From the NCBI RefSeq assembly GCF_947490405.1, contig NZ_CANLGU010000001.1:620001-684000 (forward strand): a stretch of 64,000 bases of DNA, given 5' to 3'. The notes beneath the pieces are model-generated. The model was not told the origin of the DNA. It did not search any database and was given only the letters and a program-made list of their open reading frames with translations. Made by a program: the position numbers and the translations under genes. The DNA comes from an uncultured Algibacter sp. GTDB lineage: Bacteria; Bacteroidota; Bacteroidia; Flavobacteriales; Flavobacteriaceae. Shown here piece after piece: positions 48,591 through 56,841 of this stretch (the first letter of the stretch is position 1; each line of letters begins with the position of its first letter).

Positions 48591-50363
48591 TTATACAATA
48601 TTCATTTTCTTTAATAAAAAAGACGCATTCATATTTTGACAAATTCCTTCTTTAAGTTTGTAATCAAAATGAAGTTCATCATTAATAATCTGTGCATCGA
48701 AAAAATAGTTCTTTACATCATCTAATTCATCCTCAATATTACATAAACTTAAATCATGCGTAGCAATAATACCTGTTGCATTAGAAGCCACCAATTTTTC
48801 AACAAATTTTTTAGAACCAATCGCTTTATCAGTACTATTTGTACCTTTTAAAATCTCATCTAAAACAATAAAATAAGGTTCTTTTTGAATAGCATCTACA
48901 ATAAATTTGAGCCGTGTTAATTCTGAGAAAAAGTACGAACTATCATCCGTTAAAGAATCAGACGTACGCATACTAGTGATTAATTTTACAGGAACGTAGT
49001 TACTTGATTTAGCACATATTGGCAAACCCACATTAGCCATAACAATATGCAAAGACACCGTTCTTAAAAACGTACTTTTTCCCGCCATATTTGCTCCTGT
49101 AACAATAAAAAATTGCTCATTATCAATAGTTAGATCACTATCCACCCGCTTTTCTTTGTTTAATAAAGGGTGCGCTAATTGTTGTGCTTTAATAATTTCA
49201 CCTTGATTCTTAACTTCAGGATAGACAAAATCAGGATGGTTATAAGCGTAATTCCCCAACGAATTATAGGCATCAAAAAAGGAAACCACTTCAAACCAAT
49301 CAGATACTTTATCTGCATATTTAAAAATCCATTGTTGGATTTTATAACTATTGCTTATATCTGTTAGAAAGTAGCCATTACCAAAAATTGCGCCTATGAT
49401 ATTGTTTCGATTATCTAATGCATCCAATGCTTTAGATAAATCTTTAAAAATAGCTGAAGCTTTCTTATCTACTGATTGAATTTGTTTTTGTTTAGCTTGC
49501 AATAATTCTGAAGAAAACGTTTCATTTTCAATTAAATCGAGTAAAAAAGCATACTGACGAAAAGTATCACGAACTTTATCTGTATTAGACGCTAAACTAT
49601 TTATTTTTTTTAGATGGCTTCCAGTTATGGCAAACCCAACAAGCAGCCAATACCCTATTAAGGTTTGATTAGTAATAACACCCAAAACAGTGAGTAAAAA
49701 AATAGCAACCGAACTTAACCCAAAAGCAATGGGTAACCAAGACATTATCTTAGGTAAAAATGGTTTGTAATTTTGCAACCATGAAATAATATGTTTTGCA
49801 GGAGTTTCAATATGAACCAAATTAGAAGTAGCTGAATAATATTGCCGCCACTTGGGTTTTGAATCCAGTTCCTTAATAGCTTCTTGTCTGAGATTTATGT
49901 CTTCAATATTATTAGCTTTTAAAACATCAGCTAATTTTTGGGTACCTTCTTTTATGGTTGTTCTATTAATACATTGAAAGAAAGATCCGCGTCCAAATAA
50001 ATCGATATCTAAACTATAGAAATGTGTTGCATCTTGAAATTCCATGCCATCAGCTCTCGAATGGAAATCTCCTGAAGTGATTTCAATTTCTTCTTCATTA
50101 ATAACTACCAAGGCTTTCTTAAAAGCACGTAGTCGTTTAATATCTGTATATTTTGAGAGCAAATAAATAAAAACTACAATTCCAAAAACTGCAATGGGAG
50201 CTGCTATTTGCCATGTATTAAAAAAGAAATAAACTCCAAAAACTGTAATTAAAAAAGTTAACACACGTAATGTGCTTAAACCTGCCATTTGCTTATACAA
50301 GCTTTTAGCCTCGGCTTGATACTTCTTTTTATGTTTTTTGTAATATTTTAATGGGGTTTTCAT
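48591..50363 (-). CDS. Membrane-anchored MutS-like ATPase
   Basis: 590 residues. The C-terminal ABC ATPase domain is MutS-like: Walker A TGANMAGKSTFLRTVSLH near 424-441, DDSSYFFSELTRLK as the signature region, Walker B FIVLDEILKGTNSTD and ATHDLSLC. Two hydrophobic pairs suggest membrane helices near 32-70 and 207-252. The mismatch-recognition domain of MutS is absent and no Smr nuclease domain is present, so it is not MutS1 or MutS2. Its job is unknown. It ends three bases after the convergent TPR gene. Confidence 0.85.
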   Translation of the reverse strand: MKTPLKYYKKHKKKYQAEAKSLYKQMAGLSTLRVLTFLITVFGVYFFFNTWQIAAPIAVFGIVVFIYLLSKYTDIKRLRAFKKALVVINEEEIEITSGDFHSRADGMEFQDATHFYSLDIDLFGRGSFFQCINRTTIKEGTQKLADVLKANNIEDINLRQEAIKELDSKPKWRQYYSATSNLVHIETPAKHIISWLQNYKPFLPKIMSWLPIAFGLSSVAIFLLTVLGVITNQTLIGYWLLVGFAITGSHLKKINSLASNTDKVRDTFRQYAFLLDLIENETFSSELLQAKQKQIQSVDKKASAIFKDLSKALDALDNRNNIIGAIFGNGYFLTDISNSYKIQQWIFKYADKVSDWFEVVSFFDAYNSLGNYAYNHPDFVYPEVKNQGEIIKAQQLAHPLLNKEKRVDSDLTIDNEQFFIVTGANMAGKSTFLRTVSLHIVMANVGLPICAKSSNYVPVKLITSMRTSDSLTDDSSYFFSELTRLKFIVDAIQKEPYFIVLDEILKGTNSTDKAIGSKKFVEKLVASNATGIIATHDLSLCNIEDELDDVKNYFFDAQIINDELHFDYKLKEGICQNMNASFLLKKMNIV

Positions 50364-50390: not shown

Positions 50391-50418
50391 AAAAAAGCCC
50401 CGAAATCCTCAGAGCTTT
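50391..50418 (-). terminator. Terminator of the BI-1 gene
   Basis: On the minus strand, AAAGCTCTGAGG and a GGGGCTTTTTTT end can fold as an imperfect stem followed by T residues, downstream of 50442. Confidence 0.5.
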
Positions 50419-50441
50419 CATAATATTATATTGTTTAAATT

Positions 50442-51158
50442 TTAATCCCTAGACATAAATATTCTTAATATATACCAAAATAGTAACATCAAGGATGCAA
50501 ATAATCCTAAAGCAGCAGGAATATACTCTTCCTCACTATATTTATGTACTAAATTTGAAGTTTGATATAATATGCTTCCGCCAGCCAATAAACACATCCC
50601 CACAGAAAACCATAGCCCCATATTAAAGCCAAAAATGGTTCCCGCGATAATTAATCCAAGTGCAATAAAAAAACCAATAGTCAAACCTGTTTTTAAAAAA
50701 GAAAAATCCTTTTTTGTTACAAATACAACCGCAGATAAACCTGCAAATAATGCCAAAGTTACTATAGCAGCCTGTTGCAATATTTCATTCCCTGCATCCA
50801 TATAAGATGCAGCGATGTATATCATAGGAACAAAAATAAAGGCTTCAGCTAAAATGTATATACCATAAGCAATATACTGTTTGTTTTTATCTGTAGTTCG
50901 TAAAGCCATACTTTCGGCATAATTTGTTATTAGCATAAAGCCTCCTAACATAACTAACCAAAGATATCCTTCAGTCATTGATAATGCAAAATTCACAATA
51001 GTTTCACTTTGCAATAAAAGGTATTCAAAAAAAATAAATGCTAAAACACCACCAGCAACATGGGTGTAGGTTTTTTTATAAAAAGCTACACGCTCTTCAT
51101 TTGCTAGATGACTCACCAAGGTTCTAGCTGGCATTGGGTTTTCGAATTGATTATTCAT
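50442..51158 (-). CDS. Bax inhibitor-1/YccA family membrane protein
   Basis: 238 residues with about seven hydrophobic helices, including FALSMTEGYLWLVMLGGFML. A C-terminal hydrophobic and short basic end matches BI-1 proteins, which leak Ca2+ in other organisms. The substrate here is unknown. Its start lies 18 bases after the membrane zinc peptidase gene on the same strand, so they are probably co-transcribed. Confidence 0.88.
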   Translation of the reverse strand: MNNQFENPMPARTLVSHLANEERVAFYKKTYTHVAGGVLAFIFFEYLLLQSETIVNFALSMTEGYLWLVMLGGFMLITNYAESMALRTTDKNKQYIAYGIYILAEAFIFVPMIYIAASYMDAGNEILQQAAIVTLALFAGLSAVVFVTKKDFSFLKTGLTIGFFIALGLIIAGTIFGFNMGLWFSVGMCLLAGGSILYQTSNLVHKYSEEEYIPAALGLFASLMLLFWYILRIFMSRD

Positions 51159-51176: not shown

Positions 51177-51869
51177 TTAACTTCTTCTGTTTAAAAATAT
51201 ACTTACAAAATACAATAGTGTAGCCAAAGAACCTATTGCAGCTACTAAATATGTTCTTGCTGCCCATTTTAAAGCATCCTTTGCACCAGCATGCTCTTCT
51301 CTTGTAACCATGTTCTTATTTTCTAACCACGCTAAAGCTCTGTTACTTGCATCATATTCTACAGGAAGCGTAATAAAAGTAAAAAGTGTTGTTACGGCAA
51401 AAAGCGCAATCCCAAGTAAAAATATTCCATTTCCCAAAGCTGTTCCAGCGGCAGACATTCCAAGACCAACCATAATAACTATATTTGATAACTTACTACT
51501 TATACCAACTGCAGGTACAATAGCTGAACGCATTTTTAACCAACTGTAAGCCTGTGCATGTTGAACCGCATGACCTACCTCGTGTGCCGCAACTGCTGCC
51601 GCTGCTGCATTGCGTTGAGCATAAACAGATTCACTTAGATTTACCGTCTTATTTTGAGGGTTGTAATGATCTGTTAAACTTCCACTTGTGGAGACAACTG
51701 ACACATTAGTAATACCATGATCTGCTAACATTTTTTCAGCAATTTCTGCTCCACTCATTCCGTTTTGTAAAGTAATTTTGGAATAGTGTCCAAACTTGCT
51801 TTTTAGCTTGTTACTAACATAAGAACTAATCAAAAAAAGCAATCCTCCTAATATATAATATCCTATCAT
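51177..51869 (-). CDS. Membrane zinc metallopeptidase (YugP-like)
   Basis: 230 residues. HEVGH at 96-100 within AVAAHEVGHAVQHAQAYSW is the zinc motif. One N-terminal helix and two or three C-terminal helices (for example VAAIGSLATLLYFVSIFL) place it in the membrane. The YugP/PF04298 family is thought to act on membrane proteins. It is the upstream gene of a two-gene unit with BI-1. Confidence 0.9.
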   Translation of the reverse strand: MIGYYILGGLLFLISSYVSNKLKSKFGHYSKITLQNGMSGAEIAEKMLADHGITNVSVVSTSGSLTDHYNPQNKTVNLSESVYAQRNAAAAAVAAHEVGHAVQHAQAYSWLKMRSAIVPAVGISSKLSNIVIMVGLGMSAAGTALGNGIFLLGIALFAVTTLFTFITLPVEYDASNRALAWLENKNMVTREEHAGAKDALKWAARTYLVAAIGSLATLLYFVSIFLNRRS

Positions 51870-53844: not shown

Positions 53845-56841
53845 TTACCCAACAATGTTCACAATCTTCCCAGGAACCACAATCACCTTTTTAGGAGTAC
53901 GTCCTGCTAATTGCTCTTGTGTTTTTTCGTTTGCTAAAACGGCTTCTTCAATAGCATCTTTACTCATATCCAAGGGCAATTCCATAGTAAAACGCATTTT
54001 CCCATTAAACGAAATCGGGTAATTCTTGCTACTTTCCACTAAATGACTTGCATCAAATACTGGGAAAGGCGCTGTAGAAATCGAACCACTATTTCCTAAT
54101 TTGCTCCATAATTCCTCAGCAATATGCGGTGCATAAGGCGAAATTAAAACCAACAGAGGTTCTAAAATACTCTTGCTAGTACATTTTTGGGCTGTTAACT
54201 CATTAGCAGCAATCATAAAGGTAGATACCGATGTATTAAACGAGAAATTCTCAATATCTTCTTGAACTTTTTTAATGGTTTTATGTAGCGTTTTTAAATT
54301 GTCTTTTGTTGGTGTTGCGTCTGTAACTTTCAAGCCGTTATCATCAGCATATAATTTCCAAAGTTTTTTAAGAAACGAATGTACACCTGAAATACCAGCA
54401 GTATTCCAAGGTTTGTATTGCTCTAAAGGCCCTAAAAACATTTCGTAAAGACGAAGACTATCTGCGCCATAATCTGAAACAATGTTATCTGGATTAACAA
54501 CGTTATATTTAGATTTGGACATTTTTTCGACGTCGCGTCCTACTTTATAAACTCCATCTTCTAAAACAAATTCGGCATCTTTAAATTCTGGTCTCCACTT
54601 TCTAAAAGCTTCAATATCTAAATGGTCTGAAGAATTGACAAACGAAACATCAACATGAATAGGATTTATTGTAACTAATATATCGTTTATATCAATATTA
54701 TTAAAATACCCTTTTGATAATAGATAATCTTTTATAAAATTTCTTTGATCTCTAAGATAAATTTCCTCATTAACTTTTAAGTCTTGAATTAATCCACCTG
54801 ACAAAATGAAGATTGGTAGGTTGCTTATTAATTTAGATAAATATTCAATAACATTTGAAGTTTCAGACCACACTTTAGCTCCAAATTGCAGACGATAAAC
54901 AAAAGCACTAGTCCCCAAAATCATCCCTTGATTAATCAGCTTTTTAGCATATTCATCTTTAGGTACAACACCTTTATCAAACAAGAATTTTTGCCAAAAA
55001 CGTGAGTATAATAAATGTCCTGTGGCATGCTCGCTTCCACCTATATACAAATCAACATCTTGCCAATAGTCCATCGCTTCTTTTGATGCTATTTCATTTT
55101 GGTTATCAGGATCCATATAACGCATAAAATAGAATGAGCTTCCTGCCCACCCTGGCATGGTATTCAACTCAAGAGGATGAATGGTTTTATTATCAATCAA
55201 ATCATTAGAAACCACTTCATTCTTCTCGGTATCCCAAGCCCAAACGGTAGCGTTTCCTAGTGGTGGTTCGCCCGTTTCGGTTGGTAAATACTTTTCAACT
55301 TCTGGTAATTTAATTGGCAAATGCGCAGCATCAATCATTTGTGGCAACCCATTTACATAATACACAGGAAATGGCTCTCCCCAATAACGCTGACGACTAA
55401 ACACCGCATCGCGCAAACGGTAATTGGTTTTACCTTCGCCTTGTCCTATTTGTTCTAATTCATAAATAGCACGTTTGGTGGCTTTTTTATAATTCATCCC
55501 GTTTAGGAAATCACTATTTCCTATCACAGTTTTTGCTTTGTCTGAAAACGCTTCTTCAGAAATGTCAACCCCTTCAAATATATTAGGAATAGGGATATTA
55601 AAATGTTTTGCAAAAGCGTAATCACGCTCATCACCACATGGTACAGACATTACTGCTCCTGTGCCGTAACCAGCCAAAACATAATCGCCAATCCAAATCG
55701 GAATTAATTTTTCTGTAAACGGGTGAATCGCATAAGCTCCTGTAAACACTCCTGAAATGGTTTTTACATCGGCCATTCTATCGCGCTCGCTCCGTTTTGC
55801 AGTGGCTTCAATGTAGGCGTTAACTTCTTGTTTTTGTTCTGGAGTGGTTATTTGCTTTACCAAATCGTGTTCAGGAGCCAAGGTCATAAAACTTACTCCA
55901 AAAATAGTATCAGGTCTGGTAGTAAATACTTCAATCTCTGGAGCTTCTTTAACCTCATTAGAAACCACTTTGAATTTCACTTGGGCTCCAACCGATTTTC
56001 CAATCCAATTACGCTGGCTTTCTTTTAAGGAATCTGTCCAATCTATAGTTTCAAGACCTTGAAGCAAACGTTCTGCATAAGCAGAAATACGCATACTCCA
56101 TTGAGTCATTTTTTTTCTAACTACAGGATGACCACCTCGCTCTGAAACACCATTTACAATTTCATCATTAGCCAAAACCGTTCCCAATGCAGGACACCAG
56201 TTTACCTCGGTTTCAGCCAAATAGGTTAACCTGTATTGTAATACTATTTTTTGTTGTTCTTCAGCAGTAAATCCATTCCATTCTTCTGATGTAAAAGGTT
56301 CAGCATCATAATCACAAACGGCATTTATATTTGCGTTTCCAGACTCTTTAAACACATCAATCAAATCGGAAATAGCAAAAGCTTTTTCATGATCTTTACA
56401 ATACCAAGACTCAAATAGTTGAATAAAAATCCATTGTGTCCATTTGTAATAACTTGGGTCTGAAGTACGAACCTCTCGAGACCAATCAAACGAAAACCCT
56501 ATTTGATCCAATTGACGACGATAGGTTTTAATATTTTCAGCCGTAGTAATTGCTGGATGCTGCCCCGTTTGAATTGCATACTGCTCTGCAGGCAAACCAA
56601 AAGAATCATAGCCTTGAGGATGCAATACATTAAACCCTTGATGACGCTTATAACGCGCATAAATATCAGAAGCAATATATCCTAACGGATGTCCTACATG
56701 TAATCCTGCTCCACTTGGATAAGGAAACATATCCAAAACGTAATACTTTGGTTTGTCACTATTATTTTCGGCTTTAAACGTTTGGTTATCTGCCCAATAC
56801 TTTTGCCACTTTTCTTCAATTTTATTGAAATCGTACTTCAT
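53845..56841 (-). CDS. leuS: Leucyl-tRNA synthetase
   Basis: 998 residues, against about 860-880 in E. coli. The HIGH motif is HVGH (48-51), the KMSKS motif is at about 773-777, and the editing (CP1) domain is present ([16 protein letters not shown]). Two insertions stand out: an insert in the N-terminal catalytic region (about 160-215, with [11 protein letters not shown]), and a stretch near 650-728 between FVYRLQF and [10 protein letters not shown] that is longer than in flavobacterial LeuRS sequences I remember. The gene is bounded downstream by the composite repeat. Upstream is another repeat and the divergent EamA gene. Confidence 0.95.

What the first reader, a model, noticed from the sequence alone, without database searches (positions are those of the whole stretch)
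48591..50363. MutS-like ATPase with membrane segments
The ATPase core of MutS is intact, but mismatch recognition is missing and four likely membrane helices are present. A membrane-tethered MutS relative would do something other than mismatch repair, such as handling DNA at the envelope.
Basis: partly seen in the sequence, partly recalled or inferred. Interest (0 to 1): 0.5.

Follow-up and report, generated by a model that had tools for sequence, protein, structure and literature searches.

The report
Membrane-embedded MutS-type ATPase, unknown client
A relative of the DNA mismatch-repair protein MutS that lacks its DNA-recognition parts and carries four probable membrane-crossing helices belongs to a widespread but uncharacterised bacterial family, so the label 'mismatch repair' is probably misleading.

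Summary
The ORF at 48591-50363 (minus strand, 590 aa) has an intact MutS ATPase domain V and a recognisable MutS core, and no Pfam match to MutS domains I, II or IV. Residues 30-48, 51-69, 209-227 and 229-247 are the four most hydrophobic stretches of the family average. The mid-protein segment reaches membrane level in 100 of 100 class i sequences (window included) and in 0 of 26 MutS1, MutS2, KamC and class iii proteins, so it is not ordinary buried core. Relatives occur in 100 of 149 genomes of the same family and 70 of 295 of the class. A second class with a hairpin in the same place occurs in Bacteroidota and on Bacillota plasmid records. The clan is separate from MutS1, MutS2 and KamC on the tree (100/98). 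The host has its own MutS1 and MutS2, and no operon partner is conserved. My reading is a cytosol-facing, membrane-anchored MutS-type dimeric ATPase that remodels a client at the inner membrane. This is a new variant of a known kind.

The parts
48591..50363 (-). membrane MutS-type ATPase ORF (590 aa), here called class i of the clan
   Evidence: relatives
50220..50276 (-). TM1, residues 30-48 (with near-invariant R33 at the cytosolic edge)
   Evidence: family-mean hydropathy 1.85; helix 4-46 in AF2; R33 in 99 of 100, gap in 1
50157..50213 (-). TM2, residues 51-69
   Evidence: family-mean hydropathy 2.41; helix 51-96 in AF2
49683..49739 (-). TM3, residues 209-227, in the stretch that by sequence order holds levers and clamp in MutS
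   Evidence: family-mean hydropathy 1.96; helix 210-226; place from hhalign, low local confidence
49617..49679 (-). TM4, residues 229-249
   Evidence: family-mean hydropathy 1.65 over 229-247, 17 of 24 over 1.6; helix 234-249
49209..50045 (-). MutS core/lever region (domain III-like), residues 107-385
   Evidence: hhalign to MutS1 from residue 126, prob 99.9; AF2 of residues 108-385 alone, all 50 listed VIA rows MutS-family, best Z 12.7
48594..49208 (-). MutS domain V ATPase, residues 386-590
   Evidence: PF00488; VIA Z 28.4, 405 residues, rmsd 4.0 over model residues 108-590
49071..49103 (-). Walker A VTGANMAGKST, residues 421-431
   Evidence: T422, G423, N425, M426, G428, K429, T431 invariant in the 24 rows of A1
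48921..48959 (-). trans-acting signature-like loop with D469, S476, E481 (residues 469-481)
   Evidence: 100 of 100 class i and 9 of 9 class ii at D469, S476, E481; trans role by analogy, recalled
48825..48872 (-). Walker B and following loop FIVLDEILKGTNSTDK, residues 498-513 (GTN where MutS1 has GTS)
48753..48764 (-). H-loop ATHD, residues 534-537 (MutS1 has ATHY)
   Evidence: H536 and D537 in 100 of 100 and 9 of 9
50393..50419 (-). terminator-like hairpin between the Bax1-I gene and this gene, suggesting a separate transcript
   Evidence: 1 found, mean 0.2 in shuffles; folding z -2.85

Best explanation
It is a membrane-embedded branch of the MutS ATPases. Two protomers pair through domain V and share composite ATP sites (inferred from conserved residues). 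The core and ATPase face the cytosol. Two helical hairpins per protomer (N-in, C-in, periplasmic loops of a few residues) hold it in the inner membrane, one of them in the stretch that carries levers and clamp in MutS. ATP-driven opening and closing of the dimer would then move the core relative to the membrane and remodel, release or reactivate a client there; I judge a protein or protein complex likelier than DNA. Shown by computation: MutS domains III and V, no match to I, II and IV, four hydrophobic helices, conserved catalytic residues, a separate clade. Inferred: dimer, topology, motion. Not shown: the client.
For: MutS ATPase and core by sequence and by predicted structure (pLDDT 89, VIA Z 28.4 over 405 residues; core alone pLDDT 92.6). 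Four membrane-level segments in the family average; mid-protein segment in 109 of 109 against 0 of 26 controls. D469, S476, E481 and H536 in 100 of 100 class i and 9 of 9 class ii. TM cores are poor in charged and polar residues, and conservation lies in core and ATPase, as expected if the work is on the cytosolic side. Precedents for non-DNA MutS relatives: MutS2 binds collided ribosomes and needs ATP hydrolysis to split them (PMC10897456, passages); NCBIfam names KamC an aminomutase reactivase (name only). A separate MutS1 can take the repair role.
Against: No client, partner or phenotype is known. The most frequent neighbour, a YjbR-family protein (18 of 80 loci; the eight loci printed are all Flavobacteriaceae), is often annotated as DNA-binding (recalled), which leans towards DNA. 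The dimer and membrane placement were not modelled and no coordinates could be inspected. TM4 is weakly hydrophobic, and two of its positions (234, 243) are polar or charged in 37% and 42% of weighted sequences.
Confidence: 0.55

Rival explanations
1. Membrane-held DNA handler: it grips or clears DNA at the inner membrane (incoming DNA, recombination intermediates, chromosome anchoring).
For: MutS ancestry; the YjbR-family neighbour in 18 of 80 loci; class ii copies on a Staphylococcus and a Ruminococcus plasmid.
Against: Domains I and IV, the DNA-contacting parts of MutS, are not found; the lever/clamp stretch holds a hydrophobic hairpin; no recurrent repair or DNA-uptake family stood out among 124 neighbours of 32 diverse loci, of which the 25 commonest families were shown; loops that would face the periplasm are about six residues.
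Confidence: 0.2
2. Membrane-side translation rescue: a MutS2-like ribosome splitter working on ribosomes at the membrane.
For: MutS2 uses the same kind of ATPase to split ribosomes (PMC10897456, passages); some members lie near translation genes (class i in L143 near the rplQ to infA cluster on the opposite strand; class ii in L164 beside genes that look by eye like rimP, nusA and infB).
Against: No Smr match in Pfam; the profile match to MutS2 is confined to the ATPase side, residues 340-590; the genome has its own MutS2; such neighbours are not recurrent.
Confidence: 0.1
3. ABC-transporter-like machine: the dimer brings eight membrane helices together and moves a substrate across or within the membrane.
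For: MutS domain V is an ABC-superfamily ATPase (recalled; called an ABC ATPase for MutS2 in PMC10897456); 2 x 4 TM helices in a dimer; long helices 4-46 and 51-96 run beyond the membrane segments.
Against: TM cores carry few polar or charged residues (exceptions in TM4) and are among the least conserved parts, so no polar-substrate path is evident; ABC_tran is below its cut-off (13.2 against 25 bits).
Confidence: 0.1
4. Soluble MutS relative whose hydrophobic helices are buried core.
For: TM4 is only moderately hydrophobic; the fold is predicted with confidence without any membrane.
Against: 0 of 26 soluble-type MutS relatives have such a segment in that place against 109 of 109; the N-terminal pair lies before the part that matches MutS structures, which begins at residue 107.
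Confidence: 0.04

Closest known systems
MutS (MutS1), DNA mismatch repair protein
   Same: Domain V ATPase with the same catalytic residues; core domain III fold (VIA Z 28.4).
   Different: No Pfam match to mismatch domain I, connector II or clamp IV; four TM helices; 119.8 bits against a cut-off of 480 in NCBIfam; separate branch on the tree.
MutS2 (endonuclease MutS2, ribosome rescue)
   Same: Core plus ATPase without domains I and II.
   Different: No Smr match and the protein ends after domain V; has TM helices; 89.5 bits against cut-off 400; profile match limited to residues 340-590.
KamC, lysine 5,6-aminomutase reactivase ATPase
   Same: MutS-type ATPase that by its name works on a protein; shares GTN after Walker B (sequence of L150).
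   Different: 0 of 2 with a mid-protein membrane segment; 81.2 bits against cut-off 300; separate on the tree.
Class ii membrane MutS (530-580 aa; e.g. S. epidermidis pNuk650 and R. albus pRUMAL01, annotated as MutS proteins)
   Same: Mid-protein membrane segment 177-198 residues before Walker A (9 of 9; class i 184-218), ATPase with GTN and ATHD.
   Different: N-terminal membrane segment in 7 of 9, one helix instead of a hairpin in those printed; own branch 100/97; grouping with class i only 91/63 (95/84).

Membership tests
MutS superfamily (domain V ATPase) | Pfam MutS_V over its cut-off with Walker A, Walker B, trans Ser and H-loop | tested here: met
   98.2 bits against 30.2; residues conserved
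MutS superfamily (domain V ATPase) | core domain III | tested here: met
   hhalign from residue 126, prob 99.9; core alone best matches MutS-family chains; Pfam MutS_III below cut-off in the window protein, 13 of 24 members at E <= 0.01
MutS1 mismatch repair | mismatch-binding domain I and connector II | tested here: not met
   no Pfam match at E <= 1; the chain before residue 107 holds TM1-TM2
MutS1 mismatch repair | DNA clamp domain IV | tested here: not met
   no Pfam MutS_IV at E <= 1, none in 24 members at 0.01; structural equivalence of the hairpin to the clamp could not be inspected
MutS1 mismatch repair | NCBIfam mutS cut-offs (480 and 641.7 bits) | tested here: not met
   119.8 and 93.9 bits
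MutS2 | NCBIfam mutS2 cut-off (400 bits) and Smr domain | tested here: not met
   89.5 bits; no Smr match and no chain after domain V
KamC | NCBIfam cut-off 300 bits | tested here: not met
   81.2 bits; two KamC over the cut-off form their own group on the tree
ABC transporter | ABC_tran nucleotide-binding domain over cut-off | tested here: not met
   13.2 bits against 25
Membrane MutS clan (classes i and ii, defined here) | membrane-level segment 177-218 residues before Walker A | tested here: met
   109 of 109 (window included) against 0 of 26 controls
MutS3-MutS8 subfamilies of the literature | phylogenetic placement with reference members | not tested
   no reference sequences were fetched; one search listed papers that mention MutS7 or MutS8 (PMC3166940, PMC3749498), not opened

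The most novel reading that the evidence does not exclude
A further kind of work for the MutS engine, beside DNA repair and ribosome splitting: a MutS lineage in which the stretch that forms levers and clamp became membrane hairpins, so that ATP-driven lever motion acts on the membrane or on membrane-protein complexes. It would be a MutS-derived counterpart of ABC membrane machines, found in Bacteroidota and on Bacillota plasmids.
Probability: 0.3. Interest if true: 0.8.

Novelty: new variant of a known kind. Interest (0 to 1): 0.52.

Why it matters
MutS proteins are read almost by reflex as DNA repair. Here a clan with that label ('MutS family DNA mismatch repair protein' on Bacteroides, Parabacteroides and Staphylococcus records) appears to be integral to the membrane, and for the window protein the only Pfam or NCBIfam model over its cut-off is the generic MutS_V. 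If the reading is right, counting these genes as mismatch repair is wrong, and a MutS-type engine with an unknown membrane client sits in two thirds (100 of 149) of the sampled genomes of the window's family. The client can be sought directly by deletion and co-purification in laboratory Bacteroides or Flavobacterium strains.

Tried and rejected
Neighbourhood: no partner is conserved. Among 80 genome-contig loci the commonest neighbour clusters within five genes were YjbR 18 loci, DUF4230 16, DUF4260 14, a Zn_peptidase_2 8, and, named by eye, succinate dehydrogenase genes 8-9 and molybdopterin genes 7-9; Bax1-I was seen in two loci (L037, L039) besides the window (L085 and L110 gave no MutS ORF). 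Of 40 further diverse loci, 8 were dropped because my motif search missed the gene; in the other 32, Pfam on 124 near neighbours found YceI in 5 proteins and no other family in more than 3, and the largest sequence cluster was 4 of 32, on the opposite strand. A protease theme (Zn_peptidase_2, Bax1-I, an M48 peptidase in L147, genes that look like hslVU before class ii in L162 and L163) was considered and dropped as not recurrent.

Net charge of the core as a hint of nucleic-acid binding: uninformative, the MutS1 core is itself negative. PADLOC: weak matches to ATPase parts, best E 1e-5. PHROGs: two unnamed families matching the ATPase side. KamC cut-off in Bacteroidota: 0 of 118 genomes over it. 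Structure of class ii was not obtained. VIA alignments could not be read residue by residue, so 'hairpin in place of levers and clamp' rests on a profile alignment of low local confidence and on sequence order. Co-occurrence with competence genes was not tested. Other phyla could be reached only through plasmid records, some of which are chromosomal by content (L143 carries ribosomal-protein genes; L144, L148 and L149 are of 1.8-2.6 Mb).

Literature: searches. No listed paper was on membrane-bound MutS relatives, judged from titles and abstract starts; two were opened for passages. One search had 2,540 papers of which 15 were listed, one search had 40 of which 10 were listed. The library lacks most subscription journals, so this is no proof of absence.

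Circularity and caveats: Walker motifs were used to pick 76 of the 100 class i sequences, so their perfect conservation counts only for the 24. Tree 53 warned that the long branches of class iii and of MutS1 plus MutS2 meet; the own MutS2 (L115) was missed by the motif there and included in tree 62. Which reference is MutS1 or MutS2 was my call from length and sequence. One of the 100 matches (G484) has an internal stop codon.

Full report
What is there. The ORF 48591-50363 on the minus strand encodes 590 aa. Its C-terminal third is a MutS domain V ATPase (PF00488, 98.2 bits, residues 420-577). No Pfam match to MutS_I, II or IV was listed at E <= 1. MutS_III is below its cut-off in this protein, but 13 of 24 family members match it at E <= 0.01. 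Profile alignment extends the relation to MutS1 over residues 126 to 577 (probability 99.9), and to MutS2 only over residues 340 to 590. The predicted structure is confident (mean pLDDT 89, pTM 0.87), and residues 107-590 match MutS structures (best VIA row Z 28.4, 405 residues, rmsd 4.0). Residues 108-385 folded alone (pLDDT 92.6) match MutS-family chains in all 50 listed rows, best Z 12.7 over 186 residues at 3.8 A. That Z is near the background the tool quotes for helical bundles, so the weight lies in the rows being of one family.

The membrane segments. Averaged over 24 relatives, the four most hydrophobic 19-residue stretches are 30-48, 51-69, 209-227 and 229-247 (1.85, 2.41, 1.96, 1.65); the next is 1.31. 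In the window protein alone three pass 1.6 and TM4 does not. With a common window defined from Walker A, the mid-protein peak is at least 1.6 in 100 of 100 class i sequences (window included) and 9 of 9 class ii, and in 0 of 6 class iii, 0 of 11 MutS1, 0 of 7 MutS2 and 0 of 2 KamC; an N-terminal peak is present in 99 of 100 class i and 7 of 9 class ii. The loops that would face the periplasm are about six residues and nearly uncharged on average, and the window's first 29 residues carry net charge +8 (family mean +2.2), consistent with N-in, C-in. TM cores are poor in charged or polar residues, with exceptions in TM4 (position 243 in 42% and 234 in 37% of weighted sequences). R33 at the cytosolic edge of TM1 is the one near-invariant residue apart from F65. 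TM1-TM4 average 1.24-1.55 bits of conservation against 1.82 (core, 107-204) and 2.52 (ATPase). That looks more like anchoring or hydrophobic contact than a polar transport path.

The engine. D469, S476, E481, D502, E503, H536 and the Walker A lysine are present in 100 of 100 class i and 9 of 9 class ii. The Walker motifs themselves were selection criteria for 76 of the 100. By analogy with MutS (recalled), S476 acts in trans, so a dimer with composite sites is inferred. Clan marks are GTN after Walker B (GTS in MutS1) and ATHD for ATHY.

The family. In the phylum survey 58 of 198 genomes have a match at E below 1e-50 by my count of the listed rows; in the class 70 of 295, in 51 of 156 genera; in the same family 100 of 149, each best match covering nearly the whole profile, one of them with an internal stop. 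Of the 20 genomes without it that one search lists (29 more are not listed), 11 are of 2.4 Mb or less, against 6 of the 100 with it, so it is accessory and its absence is commoner in small genomes. A second class of 530-580 aa, with a hairpin in the same place, occurs in Bacteroidota (L128-L133) and on Bacillota plasmid records (S. epidermidis L142, Subdoligranulum L145, R. albus L146). A third class of about 440 aa lacks the hairpin (L122-L127). On the ATPase tree classes i, ii and iii together are separated from MutS1, MutS2 and KamC with 100/98. Classes i and ii are joined with 95/84 in one tree and 91/63 in the other, so a single origin of the membrane form is likely but not shown. MutS3 to MutS8 were not sampled.

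Setting. The genome has two other MutS_V genes, an 870-aa one that groups with MutS1 and a 722-aa one that groups with MutS2, so mismatch repair has its own gene. Upstream on the same strand lie a Bax1-I family gene and a Zn_peptidase_2 gene. A terminator-like hairpin at 50393-50419 separates Bax1-I from the MutS gene, and Bax1-I was seen in only two related loci (L037, L039). No neighbour is kept across the family. The gene evolves under purifying selection (dN/dS 0.08 overall, 0.28 over residues 205-255, 0.04 over the ATPase; dS is near saturation).

How it may work. The best reading is an inner-membrane, cytosol-facing MutS-type dimer whose ATP cycle moves the core against the membrane and remodels a client there. 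[quoted passage not shown] A paper on plant MutS genes notes that some major MutS subfamilies are uncharacterised and gives the domain limits of MutS and MutS2 (PMC12292046, passages). NCBIfam names a MutS-type reactivase, KamC. The client here is unknown; DNA at the membrane stays possible at about one in five.

Novelty. For the window protein the only model over its cut-off in the Pfam and NCBIfam copies searched is MutS_V; at E <= 1e-10 all 24 members match four NCBIfam models only, two for MutS1, one for MutS2 and one for KamC. Records annotate such genes as 'MutS family DNA mismatch repair protein'; some of the records called plasmids look chromosomal. My literature searches (named under Tried and rejected) listed no paper on membrane MutS, in a library that lacks most subscription journals. 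I file it as a new variant of a known kind: the ATPase and core are MutS, the membrane architecture and probable role are not those of the described subfamilies I could test.

Noticed in passing
window 53845-56841 (minus): Leucyl-tRNA synthetase of 998 aa carries an extra stretch before the KMSKS loop (roughly residues 650-745) that is much shorter in L034 (942 aa); mechanical ORF lengths in five related loci range from 937 to 1031 aa, so the insert seems variable.
   Followed up: partly
L122-L127 (unnamed Bacteroidota genomes): A class of about 440-aa MutS-type ATPases (class iii) without the membrane hairpin, in two copies in G007 and, by frame length, two close together in G099; own branch on the tree.
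   Followed up: partly
L142 (S. epidermidis pNuk650) and other Staphylococcus plasmid records: A class ii membrane MutS gene lies on pNuk650 between an HTH regulator and an Fst-type toxin gene, with an AIPR-family gene nearby; 13 Staphylococcus records are among the 77 matches, of which only this one was opened.
   Followed up: no
L162 and L163: Class ii membrane MutS directly downstream of what look like hslV and hslU, same strand, in two genomes of one family (named from sequence by eye).
   Followed up: no
L050, L052, L057, L061 and others (18 loci): A YjbR-family (PF04237, tested on L061) gene stands next to or near the membrane MutS gene on the same strand in 18 of 80 loci.
   Followed up: partly
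window 51177-51869 and 50442-51158 (minus): Zn_peptidase_2 and Bax1-I family membrane genes stand 18 nt apart upstream of the MutS gene; in related Algibacter-type loci mostly the peptidase gene alone is beside it.
   Followed up: partly
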